64,000 nt of DNA from Bdellovibrio sp. ZAP7 (GTDB lineage Bacteria > Bdellovibrionota > Bdellovibrionia > Bdellovibrionales > Bdellovibrionaceae): the NCBI RefSeq assembly GCF_006874645.1, contig NZ_CP030082.1, forward strand, positions 2,356,001 through 2,420,000. Reading direction: 5' to 3'. Below the pieces are notes generated by a model. The model saw only the letters and a list, made by a program, of their open reading frames with translations. It was not told the origin of the DNA and did no database searches. This document shows positions 36,749 through 61,813 of the stretch, one piece after another; within the stretch, counting starts at the first letter, position 1; the number at the start of each line of letters is the position of its first letter. A program made the position numbers and the translations under genes.

Positions 36749-37972
36749 ATGTCACTGCCAAAAACAGCCAAAGAAGCACTCTATGAGGGTCGTTACAGCG
36801 ACGCTCTGGTTTTATTGGATGCGCAGCTAAAGGCCACTCCTCAAGATATCGAAGCCCTTTGCGATCGAGCACTGTGCTGGCATCAATTGGGTCTTCCACA
36901 GGAGCTTGATAGAGACCTTCACCAGGCCCATCAGCTACTCACTGGCCATGATCTGGCGGCTCGGGAAAATTTCAGTCATTTTATTTTTGTTGCAAAGTTG
37001 ATGGAAGAAAAAGGTCTGTATTCGGAGGCGATTCAACTTCTTTCAGTGATTTGGGATGAGCCTTTAAGCATCAAACAAATGCAAATGCTCAAAATTCAGC
37101 AATTGCGTTTGGCGACTGAAACTCGCGATCTGCCATTGATCAAAAGTCTTTATGCAAGCGTCGTTGCGGGAACCAACCACAGTCTTAATTTTGAAATTGA
37201 GCGTGAGCATGCTTTAATGCTTGCGGACTTTGTTATATTTGGATTTGAGCAGGCGCTGGAACGCTATCAGATGGCGCTGACTCACGATTTGTCTGCGGCG
37301 GATATTTCGTTCTTAAAGGGCGAAATTATGGAGCTTGCGATATTATCGAAAAACTTTGAGGTTATTGCCTCATTGAATCCTGATTCTGCTCTTGAAGGCG
37401 AATATGAAAAGCTTCAGGCAGCAATGGGTCTTGCCTTTATCAATAAGGCGCAGGACTTTGAATTTTCAACTCTCCGACTGGAAAAGACGCTGAGCTTGGT
37501 TTCGATGTTAAGGGTTTTACGCCAGGCGGTGCTTTTATTTCCGCAGTCTCCTCTAAGGGAAAGTCGCTTGGAAAGATTTAAGTTCCACGTACAAAGACTG
37601 ACTCACAAAACCGTGCAGGAAAACTTTTTAGCTCCGCTATACCTAAACAACATCCCTAGCAAAGTTATCGCCCAAGCGGATCGTCAAACTGTTACGATCA
37701 ATGGGAGCGAAAAGATTTTTAAGTCCAAACTCTTTTGGCAACTACTTCCTCTGTTTTCAGCCGACAGCAAAGAAGTGGCCTTTGACGATGTCATCACCGC
37801 GCTTTACGAAGAAACACCGAATATACAGCACTTTGATCGCTTAAGAGTTGGTTTGACTCGTCTTAACAAAGATATTGAAATGCATTTCAATATCAAATCG
37901 TTTTTTAAACTTAGTAAGACCAAATTATCGCTTTTGATTCCCATCACTATTACAGCAGAGGTCGCAGAATGA
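36749..37972 (+). CDS. TPR protein with winged-helix-like C-terminus
   Basis: 407 residues from the ATG at 36749 (AAGGAGC upstream). N-terminal TPR (EALYEGRYSDALVLLDAQLKATPQDIEALCDRALCWHQL) and further helical repeats to about residue 300. The last ~90 residues (SEKIFKSKLFWQLLPLF...FDRLRVGLTRLNKDIEMHF) look like an OmpR-type winged helix with recognition-helix layout, so it may be a cytosolic DNA-binding regulator. It overlaps the next gene by 4 nt, like the regulator/peptidase pair at 48.7-50.6 kb. Confidence 0.6.
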   Translation: MSLPKTAKEALYEGRYSDALVLLDAQLKATPQDIEALCDRALCWHQLGLPQELDRDLHQAHQLLTGHDLAARENFSHFIFVAKLMEEKGLYSEAIQLLSVIWDEPLSIKQMQMLKIQQLRLATETRDLPLIKSLYASVVAGTNHSLNFEIEREHALMLADFVIFGFEQALERYQMALTHDLSAADISFLKGEIMELAILSKNFEVIASLNPDSALEGEYEKLQAAMGLAFINKAQDFEFSTLRLEKTLSLVSMLRVLRQAVLLFPQSPLRESRLERFKFHVQRLTHKTVQENFLAPLYLNNIPSKVIAQADRQTVTINGSEKIFKSKLFWQLLPLFSADSKEVAFDDVITALYEETPNIQHFDRLRVGLTRLNKDIEMHFNIKSFFKLSKTKLSLLIPITITAEVAE

Positions 37973-39099
37973 AATCCCTCCTTTCACTCGTTCTTGTGAT
38001 ATTGAGTTTTGCAACGAGCGCGTACGCTGCTGACGAATGGAAAAGAACTGCCATTCCAGTGCGACCGTCATCGAAAATACAAAAGCAAATCGATCTGGCG
38101 GTTAGCCAAGTGTTTGCGGGTAAAATCCATAATACCTTCTGCCAGGTCTTTCAAAATAAAGAATCCTTACAAAAAAGCCTGGGCGTCACCCCTGCAACCG
38201 CGGAGTCTTTGCGCCGCAGTTGCCCGCGTTCTACGGAAACAACTGCGCTTAGTACAAAACTGAATTCAAAAATTTATCTTTTGTCCTTTAACGGTCCCCG
38301 CGATCTGGACAGCTGGACAGATTCTAACAACAGAACTTATATCTTTATTAACGGCAGATTAAGTCAGCGCAAATTAGAAAGCATCTTGCTTCATGAAATC
38401 TCTATCGCGCTAGATGCGAAATATAATTTCACGATGAAGGAATACCTCAGTGAATTGCAACGCCGCGGATATTCGCCTGCGGGCAATCAAAACGATTTGG
38501 AAAATGCATTTATAGGTTCCATGTGGAGACCCGTCGCTTTGACGTTTGCGACTCTTAGAGCATTCAATATTGAAGCTATAAATAACGGACGACCTTCGCT
38601 GACACTCTCGCAAAGTTCTTGTGCTTCGCATTTCCGACAAGCTTACCAGGTTATTCAGCGCATTCCTTATACGCCACCGGCGCTCACTACTGAAGCCATG
38701 CTCTACAATGCTTCGGAGCTTTTAATCGCCAGACAAAGCGAAGCGGTTGCTCCGCAGTCGGCGGCAGAAGCACAACGACTTATATCTTTGCTGTCGTCGT
38801 CCTCAATACAAGTGAGAGATTTCAAGGGTCGCCAGATCAGTTTCTGTGAATTTATGGCGGCACCTGCATTAACTTCCAACGCCTTGGGTAGTTTTTTAAG
38901 CAATGGTCCAAGACCAAGATTAACAGGTGGCTCTGGTGGCGAAAGTGGTTTTACTTCACAAGATGATGGAAAAGTTCAAGAAGCACTGGATGAGGCTCGT
39001 AAAGAACAATCCAAATATGCAGCCGACTACAGCAAGGTTCTTCAAGCTGATTCGATCCTGAGCGGAGTTTCCGGCGGCAATATTAATGATCGCAATTAG
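37969..39099 (+). CDS. Secreted protein with degenerate peptidase-like HExx site
   Basis: 376 residues. Signal peptide to AYAA. A central segment NRTYIFINGRLSQRKLESILLHEISIALD parallels NRICVSS...LMMHEYSHLIGFDE of the secreted peptidase at 49608-50648, but the second zinc histidine is lost (HEISI). The C-terminus is Gly/Ser-rich and hydrophilic. ATGA overlap with the preceding TPR gene. Function unknown; a non-catalytic relative of the peptidase is an inference. Confidence 0.6.
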   Translation: MKSLLSLVLVILSFATSAYAADEWKRTAIPVRPSSKIQKQIDLAVSQVFAGKIHNTFCQVFQNKESLQKSLGVTPATAESLRRSCPRSTETTALSTKLNSKIYLLSFNGPRDLDSWTDSNNRTYIFINGRLSQRKLESILLHEISIALDAKYNFTMKEYLSELQRRGYSPAGNQNDLENAFIGSMWRPVALTFATLRAFNIEAINNGRPSLTLSQSSCASHFRQAYQVIQRIPYTPPALTTEAMLYNASELLIARQSEAVAPQSAAEAQRLISLLSSSSIQVRDFKGRQISFCEFMAAPALTSNALGSFLSNGPRPRLTGGSGGESGFTSQDDGKVQEALDEARKEQSKYAADYSKVLQADSILSGVSGGNINDRN

Positions 39100-46941: not shown

Positions 46942-47197
46942 TGTAACCTCCGATGAAGCTCAAGCTTAAGAGAGCTCCCCTCTCGGAGCCATCCACCTTG
47001 GTAAAATACAAAAAGATTCAATTAAAACCCTGGGCACATCACCTGGGGTTTTCTATTTCAAATCACAGATCTTCAATCCCCTCTGGGAAACAGAAGTTGC
47101 GTCTCGCCTTGAGATTCTAAGCAAACCATATTTTGCGCACCTAATTTATCGCCGAAAATAAAATATCATCTTTTCGCAATTGCACAGCGGAGGACAC

Positions 47198-48120
47198 TTG
47201 GGAAGAACCTACTCCATACAAAAGTTATTTTGGGTGATCGGGACCGCCATAACCGTCGTCGCATTTAATAACTGTGGTCAAGGGTTCACGATCCTAAATT
47301 CAACCTCCCTCGGTGGGAGCACTGAATTTTCCACTGCCAATGGCGAGACCTGCGAAGAAGCCATCGTTCAAGTTTACGCTAGCACCTTTCATCCATTTTT
47401 GACTCAGACTTGCGGTGGTTGTCACGTGGCTGGTGGTATCGGTAAAGGCGTGTTTGGTAGCGCCGATGTTCTGACTTCTTACAATGCCTTTACACCCGTG
47501 GGGCGGCGAAAATTTCTAGCCAAGCCGTAAATGCTTCTCACCAGCCGCCCGCGACGGGACCCGCAAATCAAGCGCGCATTGATGAAATCAATCTGTACTG
47601 GGCACGCGCTCAAGATAAATACGCTCAGTGTGTGGCGGATAATGGACCAGTGGTGCAACCAAGCCCAACGGTGACACCGATGCCGACTGCGACAGTAACC
47701 CCATCGCCAACGGCTTCGCCTTCACCATCACCGACTGCTTCGCCGACGCCTACTGTGACGCCGTCTCCATCACCTACGGTCACTCCAACTCCTTCGGTCA
47801 CTCCGTCACCGTCGCCAACACCAACGGTAACTCCGACGCCGACTGTGTCGCCGACGCCTTCTCCAACATCTGCGACTGTGACTTACACTCAACTTGCAGC
47901 TTCGGGAGGAGTGTTTGCTACAAACTGTTTTGCTTGCCACAAAGCTGGTGGCGCCTCTGCAGGATTGGATCTAACCAGCTATACTCAAGCGAAAGCCGCG
48001 GCATCGAAAATCAAGTCGCGCATGAACAACTCAAGTAAGCCAATGCCGACTAGCGGTTTGTTGCCTCAGACACAAAGAACCCTGGTTGACACTTGGATTG
48101 CGAACGGCACTCCACAATAG
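47198..48120 (+). pseudogene. Frameshifted lipoprotein with two CxxCH sites and a Thr/Pro linker
   Basis: The 5' part (TTG 47198 after GGAGGA) has a lipobox VVAFNNCGQ and TCGGCHVAGG, then runs into a stop at 47530. In another frame the sequence continues without break ([10 protein letters not shown]..., [25 protein letters not shown]) into an 80-residue Thr/Pro/Ser repeat linker and [10 protein letters not shown] near the C-terminus. One missing G in the run at 47500-47503 (GTGGGGCGGCG) restores one frame. The full product would be a surface diheme cytochrome-like lipoprotein. It could be mutation, phase variation or sequence error. Confidence 0.75.
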
Positions 48121-48496: not shown

Positions 48497-48607
48497 ATTA
48501 TCTCCTGTTAAATATTTGGGACGTTTTAGCTAACTGCTGACATCCGCATATTTACACGACTGCATTCTTACTCCGCAAGTTTCTACCCTATCTATAACTC
48601 ACTTGTC

Positions 48608-48719
48608 GTATTCTAAATTTGAATACAGTAATATTTACCGCTATTTAACTATAGTTTTACATTAGAACGTATTCCATGGTGTATTCTTGCTGAACCTAAA
48701 CTGGACACTTAATGAATAC
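48608..48719 (+). promoter_or_regulatory. Repeated GTATTC boxes upstream of the regulator/peptidase operon
   Basis: A 19-bp palindrome GTATTC-TAAATTT-GAATAC (48608-48626), two direct GTATTC boxes 12 bp apart (48669 and 48681), and a GAATAC overlapping the start codon region (48714). The spacing suggests an autoregulatory operator (inference). Confidence 0.45.
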
Positions 48720-49611
48720 ACCCTCCGCCAAACCCTCTATCTTGTCTTACGTGGACTATCGCCTGTTTTTACAGGCGTGGTATGCCTACAACAAAGAACA
48801 TAAAAGAGGTTTTTCTTACGGCACGTGGACGCTGCAACTGGGTTTCAAAAGTCGCAATCACATCCGCTTGGTGATGATCGGCGAAAGAAATCTGGGTACG
48901 GATTCAATCGCACCAGTTATTAAATCATTGTCCTTGTCTGCAAATGAAGCGGAATACTTTGAACACTTGGTCCACTATGCGAATGCCACCAGCTTTGACA
49001 CCAAGGACTATCACTTTCAACAGATTGTTCGTCTGAACAAGGGGCAACTGGGCTCACAGATTCGCGATGTTTATAAATTTCTATCCAATCCAAAAACTCC
49101 CCGCGTGCATCTACTCTTAAGCCTAAAAGACCTTAGGTGTACTGTTTCTTATGTTGCTGAGACTTTGGGAATGACTCAGGCCGAAGCCCAAGAAATCTTA
49201 AACAACATCCACAGCTGCGGACTGGCCACTTATGATCAAGCCACAGAAATCTGGGCAGCGTTAGAGCGTGATTTACAAATCCCCAACCAATTGGGCAACC
49301 AAGCCATTCAGTCTTTTCACAATAAAAGCCTGGAAGAAGCCCAAGCGGCGATCACCAAAAATCCAACAGAGCGCTTATTGAGCGCTCTGCTGATGACTTT
49401 GGACGAAAGCGAATACCAAGAACTGCAGCAAGACGTTGAGCAGTTCCAAAACTTTTTAACTAAGAAATACAGTTCAAAAAAACTAGCGGGCTCACGCATC
49501 TTTCAAATGAACCTTAACGTGATTCCGACGAGCTCCCTTCTGCAGGAAAAAGCCACCGAGCCTCTTTTTGAACAAGCTGAAAATAAAATTACGATGGAGA
49601 TTGAGTCATGA
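48712..49611 (+). CDS. TIGR02147-family protein (DUF4423)
   Basis: 299 residues. ILSYVDYRLFLQAWYAYNKEHKRGFSYGTWTLQLGFKSRNHIRLVMIGERNLGTDSI is the N-terminal signature of TIGR02147, a family expanded in Bdellovibrio and Fibrobacter that looks like an HTH-containing regulator followed by a helical domain. It overlaps the secreted peptidase gene by 4 nt, so the two are co-expressed. Binding target unknown. Confidence 0.82.
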   Translation: MNTPSAKPSILSYVDYRLFLQAWYAYNKEHKRGFSYGTWTLQLGFKSRNHIRLVMIGERNLGTDSIAPVIKSLSLSANEAEYFEHLVHYANATSFDTKDYHFQQIVRLNKGQLGSQIRDVYKFLSNPKTPRVHLLLSLKDLRCTVSYVAETLGMTQAEAQEILNNIHSCGLATYDQATEIWAALERDLQIPNQLGNQAIQSFHNKSLEEAQAAITKNPTERLLSALLMTLDESEYQELQQDVEQFQNFLTKKYSSKKLAGSRIFQMNLNVIPTSSLLQEKATEPLFEQAENKITMEIES

Positions 49612-50648
49612 AAATCGCCGCAATGCTAACCGCTCTTTTACTGGTGTCCTCCTTTGGATACGCCAACACAGTTCGCATTGGGAATGGTGGCGACACCCAG
49701 GCAGACCAGACCTTGACGGACCAAAACATCACGCATGCCATTTATCGTGCTGCCACTGATGCTCAACTTTTGATTCATGCTTGGCTGCGCAATCCCCCGT
49801 TTAATCTTCAGCTAAAGAAAAACCAGCCTTTGGATCTTTTGAATATCATTCGCACAACTCCGGTCGACATCATTGGTTACGATGGTTGTTCTGATGGCGT
49901 TAGCAAAAAAGATGCAGTCGCATATTCGCAACCTTCAAATCGTATTTGCGTAAGCTCGTTGCAACTAAAAAGCAAATTGAGCTCTGCAAACTATCGCCTG
50001 CAAATTTTAGCTTTGATGATGCATGAGTATTCACATCTGATTGGATTTGATGAAGCCGCGGCCACAGAATTTCAACAATACATTTTACGATTTATCGAAT
50101 TCGCTGGCTATCCGGTGACTCAGCCGGAAGGCATCGACGATTTTGTTTTATACAATCCTTATTCCATCTTTGAAGGGGTTTGGAGCAATAAACAGCGCCT
50201 GTCCGAAGACGTGACCGCATACAGCAAAGACCTCCGCGAAAAAATCCAAAGCTATGCAGCCTACACGTCGAGCAACTACCCTTTGGTGCCACCACAGATG
50301 GATCTGACGGGCGATATTTTATTACGCTTAACCTATTTGGACTTAGTGAATAAAGCTTACTGGAAACAACCTGGAGATGCAGAGCTACGCAAGCGTCTGA
50401 AATTTATGGCAGGACATGATGGCCAGGTAGATATGTTGATTTTTAATAACTCTGATATCAACCCGACACTTATGCAGTTCAGTCGCACAAATCTGACGAC
50501 ACCGCGAGTACAGGATCAAAAGGAAGCCGACTTCAAAGCTTTCATTCTGCAAGTCGATCAACTGAAGGTCGAAATGGAAGCGTATATGTTAAGCGTTTTA
50601 AGGCCCACTCCGAAATTTAACTACTACCCGACACCACCTTCGAAATAA
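49608..50648 (+). CDS. Secreted zinc metallopeptidase-like protein (HExxH)
   Basis: 346 residues. Signal peptide to GYAN. The active site MMHEYSHLIGFDEAAATEFQ (about residues 139-157) has the HExxH zinc motif and a following acidic cluster that may hold the third ligand (gluzincin-like). The N-terminal part carries VRIGNGGD. C-terminal helical. It is translated from an ATGA overlap with the TIGR02147 gene. Prey-protein digestion or signalling cleavage is a guess. Confidence 0.72.
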   Translation: MKIAAMLTALLLVSSFGYANTVRIGNGGDTQADQTLTDQNITHAIYRAATDAQLLIHAWLRNPPFNLQLKKNQPLDLLNIIRTTPVDIIGYDGCSDGVSKKDAVAYSQPSNRICVSSLQLKSKLSSANYRLQILALMMHEYSHLIGFDEAAATEFQQYILRFIEFAGYPVTQPEGIDDFVLYNPYSIFEGVWSNKQRLSEDVTAYSKDLREKIQSYAAYTSSNYPLVPPQMDLTGDILLRLTYLDLVNKAYWKQPGDAELRKRLKFMAGHDGQVDMLIFNNSDINPTLMQFSRTNLTTPRVQDQKEADFKAFILQVDQLKVEMEAYMLSVLRPTPKFNYYPTPPSK

Positions 50649-60637: not shown

Positions 60638-61243
60638 CTAGTAACCGCGACCGTCATTGCGACGTTGCTCACGTTGCTTTTTTAATGACATCGTAAATGG
60701 ACCGCCACAGATATTTTCTGTTCCGTTGTCTCTTAAAACGATCGCACCAGATTTTTTACGACGTGGCGATGCCGGGTTGATTTCAACTTGCAAAGTATTG
60801 CTGCGAGCTCCTTGCAGTTCATAGCCCTGTTCATTCACCAAACGAGTCTGGTTGATAGTGAAGGTACCTGCATTTACCGTGTATGTTCCCGAACCAAACA
60901 TAAGACAGTTTCTCATACAGCGGTAGTCCGCACTGACTTCCTGAGCATAAGAACCATCCTGGTTAAACGAAAAAGCAATGCTTGTTCCAACGATGCGATC
61001 CGTTGCCCAATCATTATCGCAACGAACAGTTGCAGTGTATGTCCCTGGCTCGAGCGCACTTTGATTAGGGTAAACACCACCACTATTCGGCGGATACTGA
61101 TTTTGATCATAAGGACCAATTACAGTGGGCTGCGGATAAACGGCGTTATCAGGATTACCACCGCCGCCACCGGAATTACCAGTACAAGCAACCATGGCTA
61201 CCGATACGATCATCAAAGAAAAAACAGACTTCATAGTATTCAT
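60638..61243 (-). CDS. Lipoprotein, paralogue of the adjacent gene
   Basis: 201 residues. Lipobox AMVACTG. A Gly/Pro/Asn-rich linker (about 22-65) leads to a domain with EPGTYTATVRCDND, YRCMRNCLMFGSGTYTVNAGTFTINQ and KKSGAIVLRDNGTENICGGPFTMSL. The same blocks occur in the upstream neighbour, so the two are duplicated. Four conserved cysteines. Arg-rich tail. 15-nt gap to the upstream gene. Confidence 0.75.
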   Translation of the reverse strand: MNTMKSVFSLMIVSVAMVACTGNSGGGGGNPDNAVYPQPTVIGPYDQNQYPPNSGGVYPNQSALEPGTYTATVRCDNDWATDRIVGTSIAFSFNQDGSYAQEVSADYRCMRNCLMFGSGTYTVNAGTFTINQTRLVNEQGYELQGARSNTLQVEINPASPRRKKSGAIVLRDNGTENICGGPFTMSLKKQREQRRNDGRGY

Positions 61244-61258
61244 AAATTTTCTCCGCAG

Positions 61259-61813
61259 TTAGCGACGTTGAGTGCCGCCGTCTTTAGTCAAATATAATTC
61301 CATTGGGCCACCGCACATATTGTTGCTGCCTTTATCGACCAGAACAATCAAACCTGATTTTCTGGAAGTGATCGGGCTGAACTTGCGAGTGTAGGTGTTA
61401 TTACGAACACCTTGAACGATCGCACGGTTGCTAGAAACAATTTGGCGTTGGTTGAAGGTCATACCTTCAGCAGATGAAAGGAACGTGCCCTCACCGCGCA
61501 GATAACAATCTTGTCTGCAGCGTCTTTCAAGACTTACGATTTCTTGAAGATAGCTGCCGTTACGTTTCAAAGTGAATTTCATCGCCACATCGGGAAGATT
61601 TTGAGTCGCTATTTCATCGGCACAATTAACAGCAACACTGTAAGTGCCCGGTTCATCAGCCATTTGATATCCACCGTATGGCGCGCCGGATTGGTCTGAC
61701 GGAGTGACTACTTGCTCTGCGGTATTGCCGTTATTATCATTGGATTTTGAGTCACAACCAACAACAGCTAAAGTCACAACCATCACCGAAACTAATGATT
61801 TGAATGTGTTCAC
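61259..61813 (-). CDS. Lipoprotein, paralogue of the adjacent gene
   Basis: 184 residues. Lipobox AVVGCDS. Shares with its downstream neighbour EPGTYSVAVNCADE, RRCRQDCYLRGEGTFLSSAEGMTFNQ and RKSGLIVLVDKGSNNMCGGPMELYLTKDG. First gene of a two-gene operon. Unknown function; secreted or outer-membrane-linked. Confidence 0.75.
   Translation of the reverse strand: MNTFKSLVSVMVVTLAVVGCDSKSNDNNGNTAEQVVTPSDQSGAPYGGYQMADEPGTYSVAVNCADEIATQNLPDVAMKFTLKRNGSYLQEIVSLERRCRQDCYLRGEGTFLSSAEGMTFNQRQIVSSNRAIVQGVRNNTYTRKFSPITSRKSGLIVLVDKGSNNMCGGPMELYLTKDGGTQRR

What the first reader, a model, noticed from the sequence alone, without database searches (positions are those of the whole stretch)
36749..39099. Two regulator-like genes each overlapping a secreted HExx protein
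Here a TPR/winged-helix gene overlaps by 4 nt a secreted protein with degenerate HEISI. At 48712-50648 a TIGR02147 gene overlaps by 4 nt a secreted protein with intact HEYSH. The layout around the site is alike (NR..., then LxxHE). This may be a repeated regulator-plus-exported-effector module, one active and one dead.
Basis: partly seen in the sequence, partly recalled or inferred. Interest (0 to 1): 0.65.

Follow-up and report, generated by a model that had tools for sequence, protein, structure and literature searches.

The report
Regulator genes paired with exported proteins
In the predatory bacterium Bdellovibrio and its relatives, two unrelated families of probable DNA-binding proteins are each encoded right next to, often overlapping by four bases, a gene for an exported protein (one of them a likely zinc protease), and these undescribed gene pairs recur across the whole phylum.

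Summary
In detail: both pairs exist, each overlapping by 4 nt. The pairs belong to two different conserved modules, not to active and dead copies of one.

Module 1 is the C-D pair at 48712-50648. TIGR02147 regulators (XRE-like plus winged HTH) sit beside exported proteins. D belongs to a zincin-like family (HExxHxxGxxE). Among 69 D-family loci in the phylum, 54 have a TIGR02147 gene on their 5' side. For 20 TIGR02147 genes chosen by score alone, all 16 same-strand 3' neighbours are exported, and 13 overlap by exactly 4 nt. These partners come from unrelated families but often share a Gly/Asn-rich stretch after the signal peptide.

Module 2 is the A-B pair at 36749-39099. A is TPR plus an OmpR-like winged helix. 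B is an exported family whose motif is HExx[IV]xxD in 23 of 23 members, so HEISI is the family norm and not decay. An A gene adjoins B in all 22 testable loci.

B and D show no detectable homology, nor do A and TIGR02147. Best explanation: each regulator controls its own exported partner. The linkage is near-certain; the control is inferred. No earlier description was found in the literature held.

The parts
36749..37972 (+). gene A: N-terminal TPRs plus C-terminal OmpR/PhoB-like winged helix (probable regulator)
   Evidence: TPR; profile A12 of the C-terminus gives mostly OmpR-type DNA-binding domains in the PDB, best E 0.0085
37646..37969 (+). C-terminal winged-helix-like region of A (F.RLR....RLN motif)
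37969..39099 (+). gene B: exported protein, conserved SWTD, HExx[IV]xxD and GPRPRxxGG motifs; overlaps A by 4 nt
38392..38415 (+). HEISIALD, the family motif HExx[IV]xxD of B (residues 142-149)
   Evidence: A1 invariant columns H142, E143, D149; 23/23 family members
48607..48625 (.). inverted repeat GTATTC-N7-GAATAC upstream of C, candidate operator (unproven; position approximate to a few bases)
   Evidence: identical in relative G018, which is close enough for this to be weak evidence
48712..49611 (+). gene C: TIGR02147/DUF4423 protein with XRE-like HTH (N-terminal) and ArsR/MarR-like winged helix (middle)
49608..50648 (+). gene D: exported zincin-like protein; overlaps C by 4 nt
49680..49694 (+). 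Gly/Asn-rich stretch GNGGD just after the signal peptide of D (residues 25-29)
   Evidence: A2 invariant columns G25, G27, G28; enriched in TIGR02147 partners
50022..50054 (+). HEYSHLIGFDE, HExxHxxGxxE motif of D (residues 139-149)
   Evidence: invariant H139, E140, E149 in A2; repeated in most phylum members

Best explanation
Two kinds of two-gene module lie in this window. In each, a cytoplasmic DNA-binding protein is most likely the dedicated local regulator of the exported protein next to it, made from the same transcript or from a shared divergent promoter. In C-D the regulator is TIGR02147 (XRE-type HTH plus winged HTH), and the exported partner is a zincin-like, probably zinc-dependent, peptidase acting in the periplasm or outside the cell. 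In A-B the regulator is a TPR protein with an OmpR-like winged helix, and the partner is an exported protein of unknown fold with a conserved HExx[IV]xxD motif that is not a canonical zinc-peptidase site. Shown: gene boundaries, overlaps, conserved linkage, family separation, export signals (heuristic), HExxHxxGxxE conservation. Inferred: DNA binding, control of the partner, peptidase activity. Unknown: the inducing signal, the substrate, and whether the target is prey, self envelope or environment.
For: Linkage: 54 of 69 D-family loci from 369 phylum genomes have TIGR02147 on the 5' side, 45 divergent and 9 tandem (expected about 2%, binomial p below 1e-67). All three D-family members of the own genome adjoin TIGR02147. 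An A gene adjoins B in 22 of 22 B loci with enough flank, in three arrangements: B-A tandem 19, A-B tandem 2, convergent 1. Conserved adjacency with changing order argues for a functional pair. For 20 TIGR02147 genes chosen only by score, 16 of 16 same-strand 3' neighbours are exported against 19 of 56 other ORFs (p about 1e-6), and 13 of 20 overlap by exactly 4 nt. Regulator nature: TIGR02147 profile matches CzrA, AdcR and SmtB winged helices (E 6e-4 and up) and, weakly, XRE-type HTHs; A's C-terminus matches OmpR-type domains weakly. Divergent intergenic regions are mildly palindrome-rich, and one subfamily shares TTTAGTATTACTAAA. Related regulators in the own genome carry related partners (Mantel Pearson r 0.44, p 1.5e-4). 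D residues 37-167 align with zincins: 3e11 Z 7.3, selecase 7.3, jannalysin 6.2.
Against: No expression or binding data. The D model is weak (mean pLDDT 49), Z stays below 8, and Foldseek alone found nothing significant. B was folded without an alignment and the model is useless. The Mantel signal vanishes with rank correlation. Palindrome enrichment is modest (mean z 1.4). A subgroup of the D family reads HExxE, and several other TIGR02147 partners lack HExxH, so peptidase activity cannot be general.
Confidence: 0.62

Rival explanations
1. The regulator does not control the exported neighbour; linkage only reflects co-expression or co-transfer as a mobile unit, and the regulator acts on genes elsewhere.
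For: TIGR02147 and the secreted families are many-copy and patchy between close species, as expected of transferred units. No operator was proven.
Against: Linkage is kept in tandem and divergent layouts with very diverged proteins. Divergent layouts at roughly 100-170 nt with palindromes fit local control.
Confidence: 0.17
2. A (and perhaps C) is a cytoplasmic partner or chaperone of the exported protein before export, not a transcription factor; for A the TPR part would bind B.
For: TPR proteins often bind client proteins. The A winged-helix match is weak (E 0.0085). Order swaps between A and B suit physical partnership as well as regulation.
Against: The C-terminal hits of A are mostly OmpR-type DNA-binding domains; TIGR02147 hits almost only DNA-binding regulators.
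Confidence: 0.14
3. Toxin-antitoxin or ImmR/ImmA-like switch: an HTH repressor whose adjacent HExxH protein cleaves or poisons.
For: HTH gene overlapping an HExxH gene recalls ImmR-ImmA (own knowledge).
Against: D and B have signal peptides, so they would not meet the cytoplasmic repressor. Many partners lack HExxH. Divergent layout is the commonest for D.
Confidence: 0.05
4. One reading: A-B is a dead duplicate of C-D.
For: Same layout, export signals and an HE motif in both.
Against: No homology between B and D or A and C. B's motif is conserved in 23/23 members.
Confidence: 0.02

Closest known systems
TIGR02147 (Fsuc_second) / Pfam DUF4423 PF14394
   Same: C is a clear member.
   Different: The family has no described function or partner in the held literature. 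The rule that it adjoins or overlaps exported-protein genes is what is added here.
Zincins, especially minigluzincins (selecase, jannalysin) and the zincin-like protein 3e11
   Same: D has HExxH plus a conserved Glu, and residues 37-167 align with these folds.
   Different: D is exported, has the spacing HExxHxxGxxE, a Gly/Asn-rich N-terminus and a long extra C-terminal region, and matches no Pfam or NCBIfam model at cut-off.
OmpR/PhoB-type winged helices and TPR-containing regulators
   Same: A's C-terminal profile resembles OmpR-type DNA-binding domains.
   Different: No receiver domain; the TPRs lie N-terminal; always found beside B where testable.
ImmR-ImmA (XRE repressor plus HExxH antirepressor), from own knowledge
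   Same: HTH gene beside an HExxH gene.
   Different: Here the HExxH protein is exported and often divergently transcribed, so direct cleavage of the regulator is unlikely.
Bd3700 of B. bacteriovorus HD100 (DUF4423; PMC12546842)
   Same: Same regulator family.
   Different: Only reported as up at prey exit (log2FC 2.67); its partner and role were not described there.

Membership tests
TIGR02147 (protein C) | score over the curated cut-off across most of the model | tested here: met
   121.9 bits against cut-off 50, model positions 3-270 of 272
Zincin metallopeptidase (protein D) | HExxH motif | tested here: met
   HEYSH in D; HExxH in most phylum members, HExxE in one subgroup
Zincin metallopeptidase (protein D) | third metal ligand | tested here: inconclusive
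   E149 in HExxHxxGxxE is invariant in A2; ligand role not shown
Zincin metallopeptidase (protein D) | zincin fold | tested here: inconclusive
   Low-confidence model (pLDDT 49; core 60-78) aligns best with zincins, Z up to 7.3
Zincin metallopeptidase (protein D) | peptidase activity | not testable with these tools
   needs assay
Zincin metallopeptidase (protein B) | HExxH motif | tested here: not met
   0 of 23 family members have the second His; all have HExx[IV]xxD
   BLASTP none; hhalign 1.7% over 14-16 columns
OmpR-type winged helix (protein A) | profile match to the DNA-binding domain | tested here: inconclusive
   most PDB hits are of this type but best E is 0.0085; no Pfam match
ImmR-ImmA or toxin-antitoxin | cytoplasmic metallopeptidase/toxin partner | tested here: not met
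   D and B carry signal peptides

The most novel reading that the evidence does not exclude
TIGR02147 regulators are hard-wired to exported proteins of unrelated folds that share one mature N-terminal Gly/Asn-rich tag (GTDTGNP, GVDxGNG, GNGGD, GGVSGGGGN). The tag, and not the body of the protein, would be what the system reads, for instance as a sorting signal or as a feedback peptide that tells the regulator whether its partner has been exported. That would be a new way of coupling gene control to export.
Probability: 0.12. Interest if true: 0.85.

Novelty: new variant of a known kind. Interest (0 to 1): 0.6.

Why it matters
TIGR02147 is one of the largest regulator families of Bdellovibrionota (present in 131 of 141 genomes of the order; over 30 members in this genome) and has no described function in the held literature. 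Showing that its members are tied to exported proteins gives a testable role to dozens of unknown genes per genome, names candidate secreted peptidases of a bacterial predator, and predicts what each regulator controls. The A-B pair is a second, wholly uncharacterised module of the same design.

Tried and rejected
B-D homology: BLASTP and hhalign negative. A-TIGR02147 homology: negative. Phage origin: three viral-contig scans found no relatives. Named relatives: the genome-contig scan gave only three loci, all Bdellovibrionota or Oligoflexia, so the D alignment for folding had four sequences and the model is weak. B folded alone: pLDDT 38, not used. Foldseek on D: no match with E below 0.001. 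PDB sequence search for B: none; for D: only chance-level hits. The looser signal-peptide rule called half of all window ORFs exported and was replaced by the stricter rule. Literature: TIGR02147 in no paper, DUF4423 in one; four other searches gave nothing on the pairs.

Full report
OBSERVATION. The four genes are as described. A (36749-37972) overlaps B (37969-39099) by 4 nt; C (48712-49611) overlaps D (49608-50648) by 4 nt. C is TIGR02147/DUF4423. A has TPRs, and the profile of its C-terminal 110 residues hits mostly OmpR-type DNA-binding domains in the PDB, weakly (best E 0.0085). B and D have signal peptides by a strict heuristic. The genome is a 4.12-Mb single contig. Its genus includes G019, whose contig of 36,407 bp matches Bdellovibrio sp. 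BIN15, so the host is Bdellovibrio by genus.

B AND D ARE NOT COPIES. BLASTP finds no similarity. Family profiles meet only at the HE itself (1.7% probability, 14 columns). Profile comparison of A with TIGR02147 gives 0.1%. B's relatives never have a second His: 23 of 23 read HExx[IV]xxD, with conserved SWTD and GPRPR-type motifs. The degenerate site is therefore the family norm, and 'dead copy' is rejected.

MODULE 2 (A-B). B relatives occur in 20 of 369 phylum genomes, giving 23 distinct genes. Twenty-two have an A-family gene directly beside them; the exception is cut by a contig end. B precedes A in 19 (8 of them overlapping by exactly 4 nt), A precedes B in two (this window and G026, both 4 nt), and one pair is convergent. 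A search with A alone again finds B beside A in 9 of 11 hits. The pair is conserved although order and sequence vary widely. The own genome has a second pair at 542020-544493, which lies 130 nt downstream of a TIGR02147 gene, the only place seen where the two module types touch.

MODULE 1 (TIGR02147 plus exported protein). The own genome has about 35 TIGR02147 genes. A survey of their neighbours showed repeated 4-nt overlaps with, or divergence from, exported proteins. D relatives occur in 87 of 369 phylum genomes and 51 of 182 genera. In 69 D-family loci, 54 have TIGR02147 on the 5' side (45 divergent, mostly about 100-170 nt apart, a few over 400 nt; 9 tandem), 3 have it convergent on the 3' side, 8 have none, and 4 are cut by contig ends. 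Chance would give about 2%. Looked at the other way, 20 TIGR02147 genes chosen by score only have 16 same-strand 3' neighbours; all 16 are exported, against 19 of 56 other ORFs in the same loci (p about 1e-6), and 13 overlap by exactly 4 nt. In the own genome 17 of 23 such neighbours are exported, against 38 of 127 others.

A SHARED N-TERMINAL STRETCH. The exported partners are not one family: zincin-like D relatives, short lipoproteins beginning CGTDTGNP, an apparent ankyrin-repeat protein, and others. Many share a Gly/Asn-rich stretch straight after the signal peptide. Profile comparisons between partner families align there and not in the bodies (D-A3 81%, A3-A56 87%), although a shared signal peptide contributes to such scores. 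Among exported proteins the stretch is enriched in TIGR02147 partners (12/29 against 2/46 in the own genome; 12/21 against 1/25 in the 20-locus sample), with the caveat that the motif was defined after seeing the data. A cleaner test: the DNA pattern for GT[DE]TGNP, searched in 141 genomes without reference to TIGR02147, has six matches, and all six lie directly 3' of TIGR02147 genes listed. Three of these genomes had helped to suggest the motif; the other three are independent.

WHAT THE PROTEINS ARE. The TIGR02147 profile matches winged helices of CzrA, AdcR and SmtB (E about 6e-4 and up) in its middle and, weakly, XRE-type HTHs near its N-terminus. D has the invariant HE, a conserved HExxHxxGxxE in most members, and two conserved cysteines. 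A low-confidence model (mean pLDDT 49; core 60-78) aligns over residues 37-167 with zincins, best 3e11 and selecase (Z 7.3), deuterolysin (6.7) and jannalysin (6.2). Z below 8 is not proof, but the top rows are nearly all of one fold. B gave no usable model.

MECHANISM. Most likely each regulator controls its exported neighbour, and often itself, from one transcript or one divergent promoter. Supporting but not decisive: palindromes in divergent promoters (TTTAGTATTACTAAA in one subfamily; 36 regions with mean z 1.4), an inverted repeat GTATTC-N7-GAATAC upstream of C, and correlated divergence of regulators and partners within the own genome (Pearson r 0.44, p 1.5e-4; not significant by rank). 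Whether the exported proteins act on prey, on the own envelope or in the environment is open. The only published datum found on this regulator family is that Bd3700 (DUF4423) rises at prey exit in B. bacteriovorus HD100 (PMC12546842).

VERDICT. Observation confirmed; interpretation partly supported. The gene pairs are real, recurrent and apparently undescribed. Local regulator plus target is a known design; the phylum-wide coupling to exported proteins, and the shared N-terminal stretch, are the new parts.

Noticed in passing
own genome C1:542020-546234 (L066, L021): The second A-B pair of this genome lies directly downstream of a TIGR02147 gene that also has a divergent exported neighbour (545539+), so both module types meet at one locus.
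   Followed up: partly
window 47180-48120: Two neighbouring + strand ORFs with CGGCH and CFACH haem-like motifs and a Pro/Ser/Thr-rich linker, with a gap at 47530-47632; possibly one interrupted cytochrome-like lipoprotein.
   Followed up: no
L058 2540000-2548000 and L073 3420000-3427000 of the own genome: Tandem pairs of TIGR02147 genes next to each other.
   Followed up: no
L055:3338-4633: A TIGR02147 partner with GNGGD after its signal peptide carries what look like ankyrin repeats instead of a zincin domain.
   Followed up: no
L033, L036, L037, L038, L041, L043, L030: A short D subfamily (about 180-217 aa) has HExxE instead of HExxH, with GG[VM]SGGGGN-type N-termini.
   Followed up: partly
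window, a lipoprotein ORF in 60638-61813 (- strand): An exported protein with a Gly-rich start (CTGNSGGGGGNP) that resembles the TIGR02147-partner stretch although no TIGR02147 gene was seen beside it.
   Followed up: no
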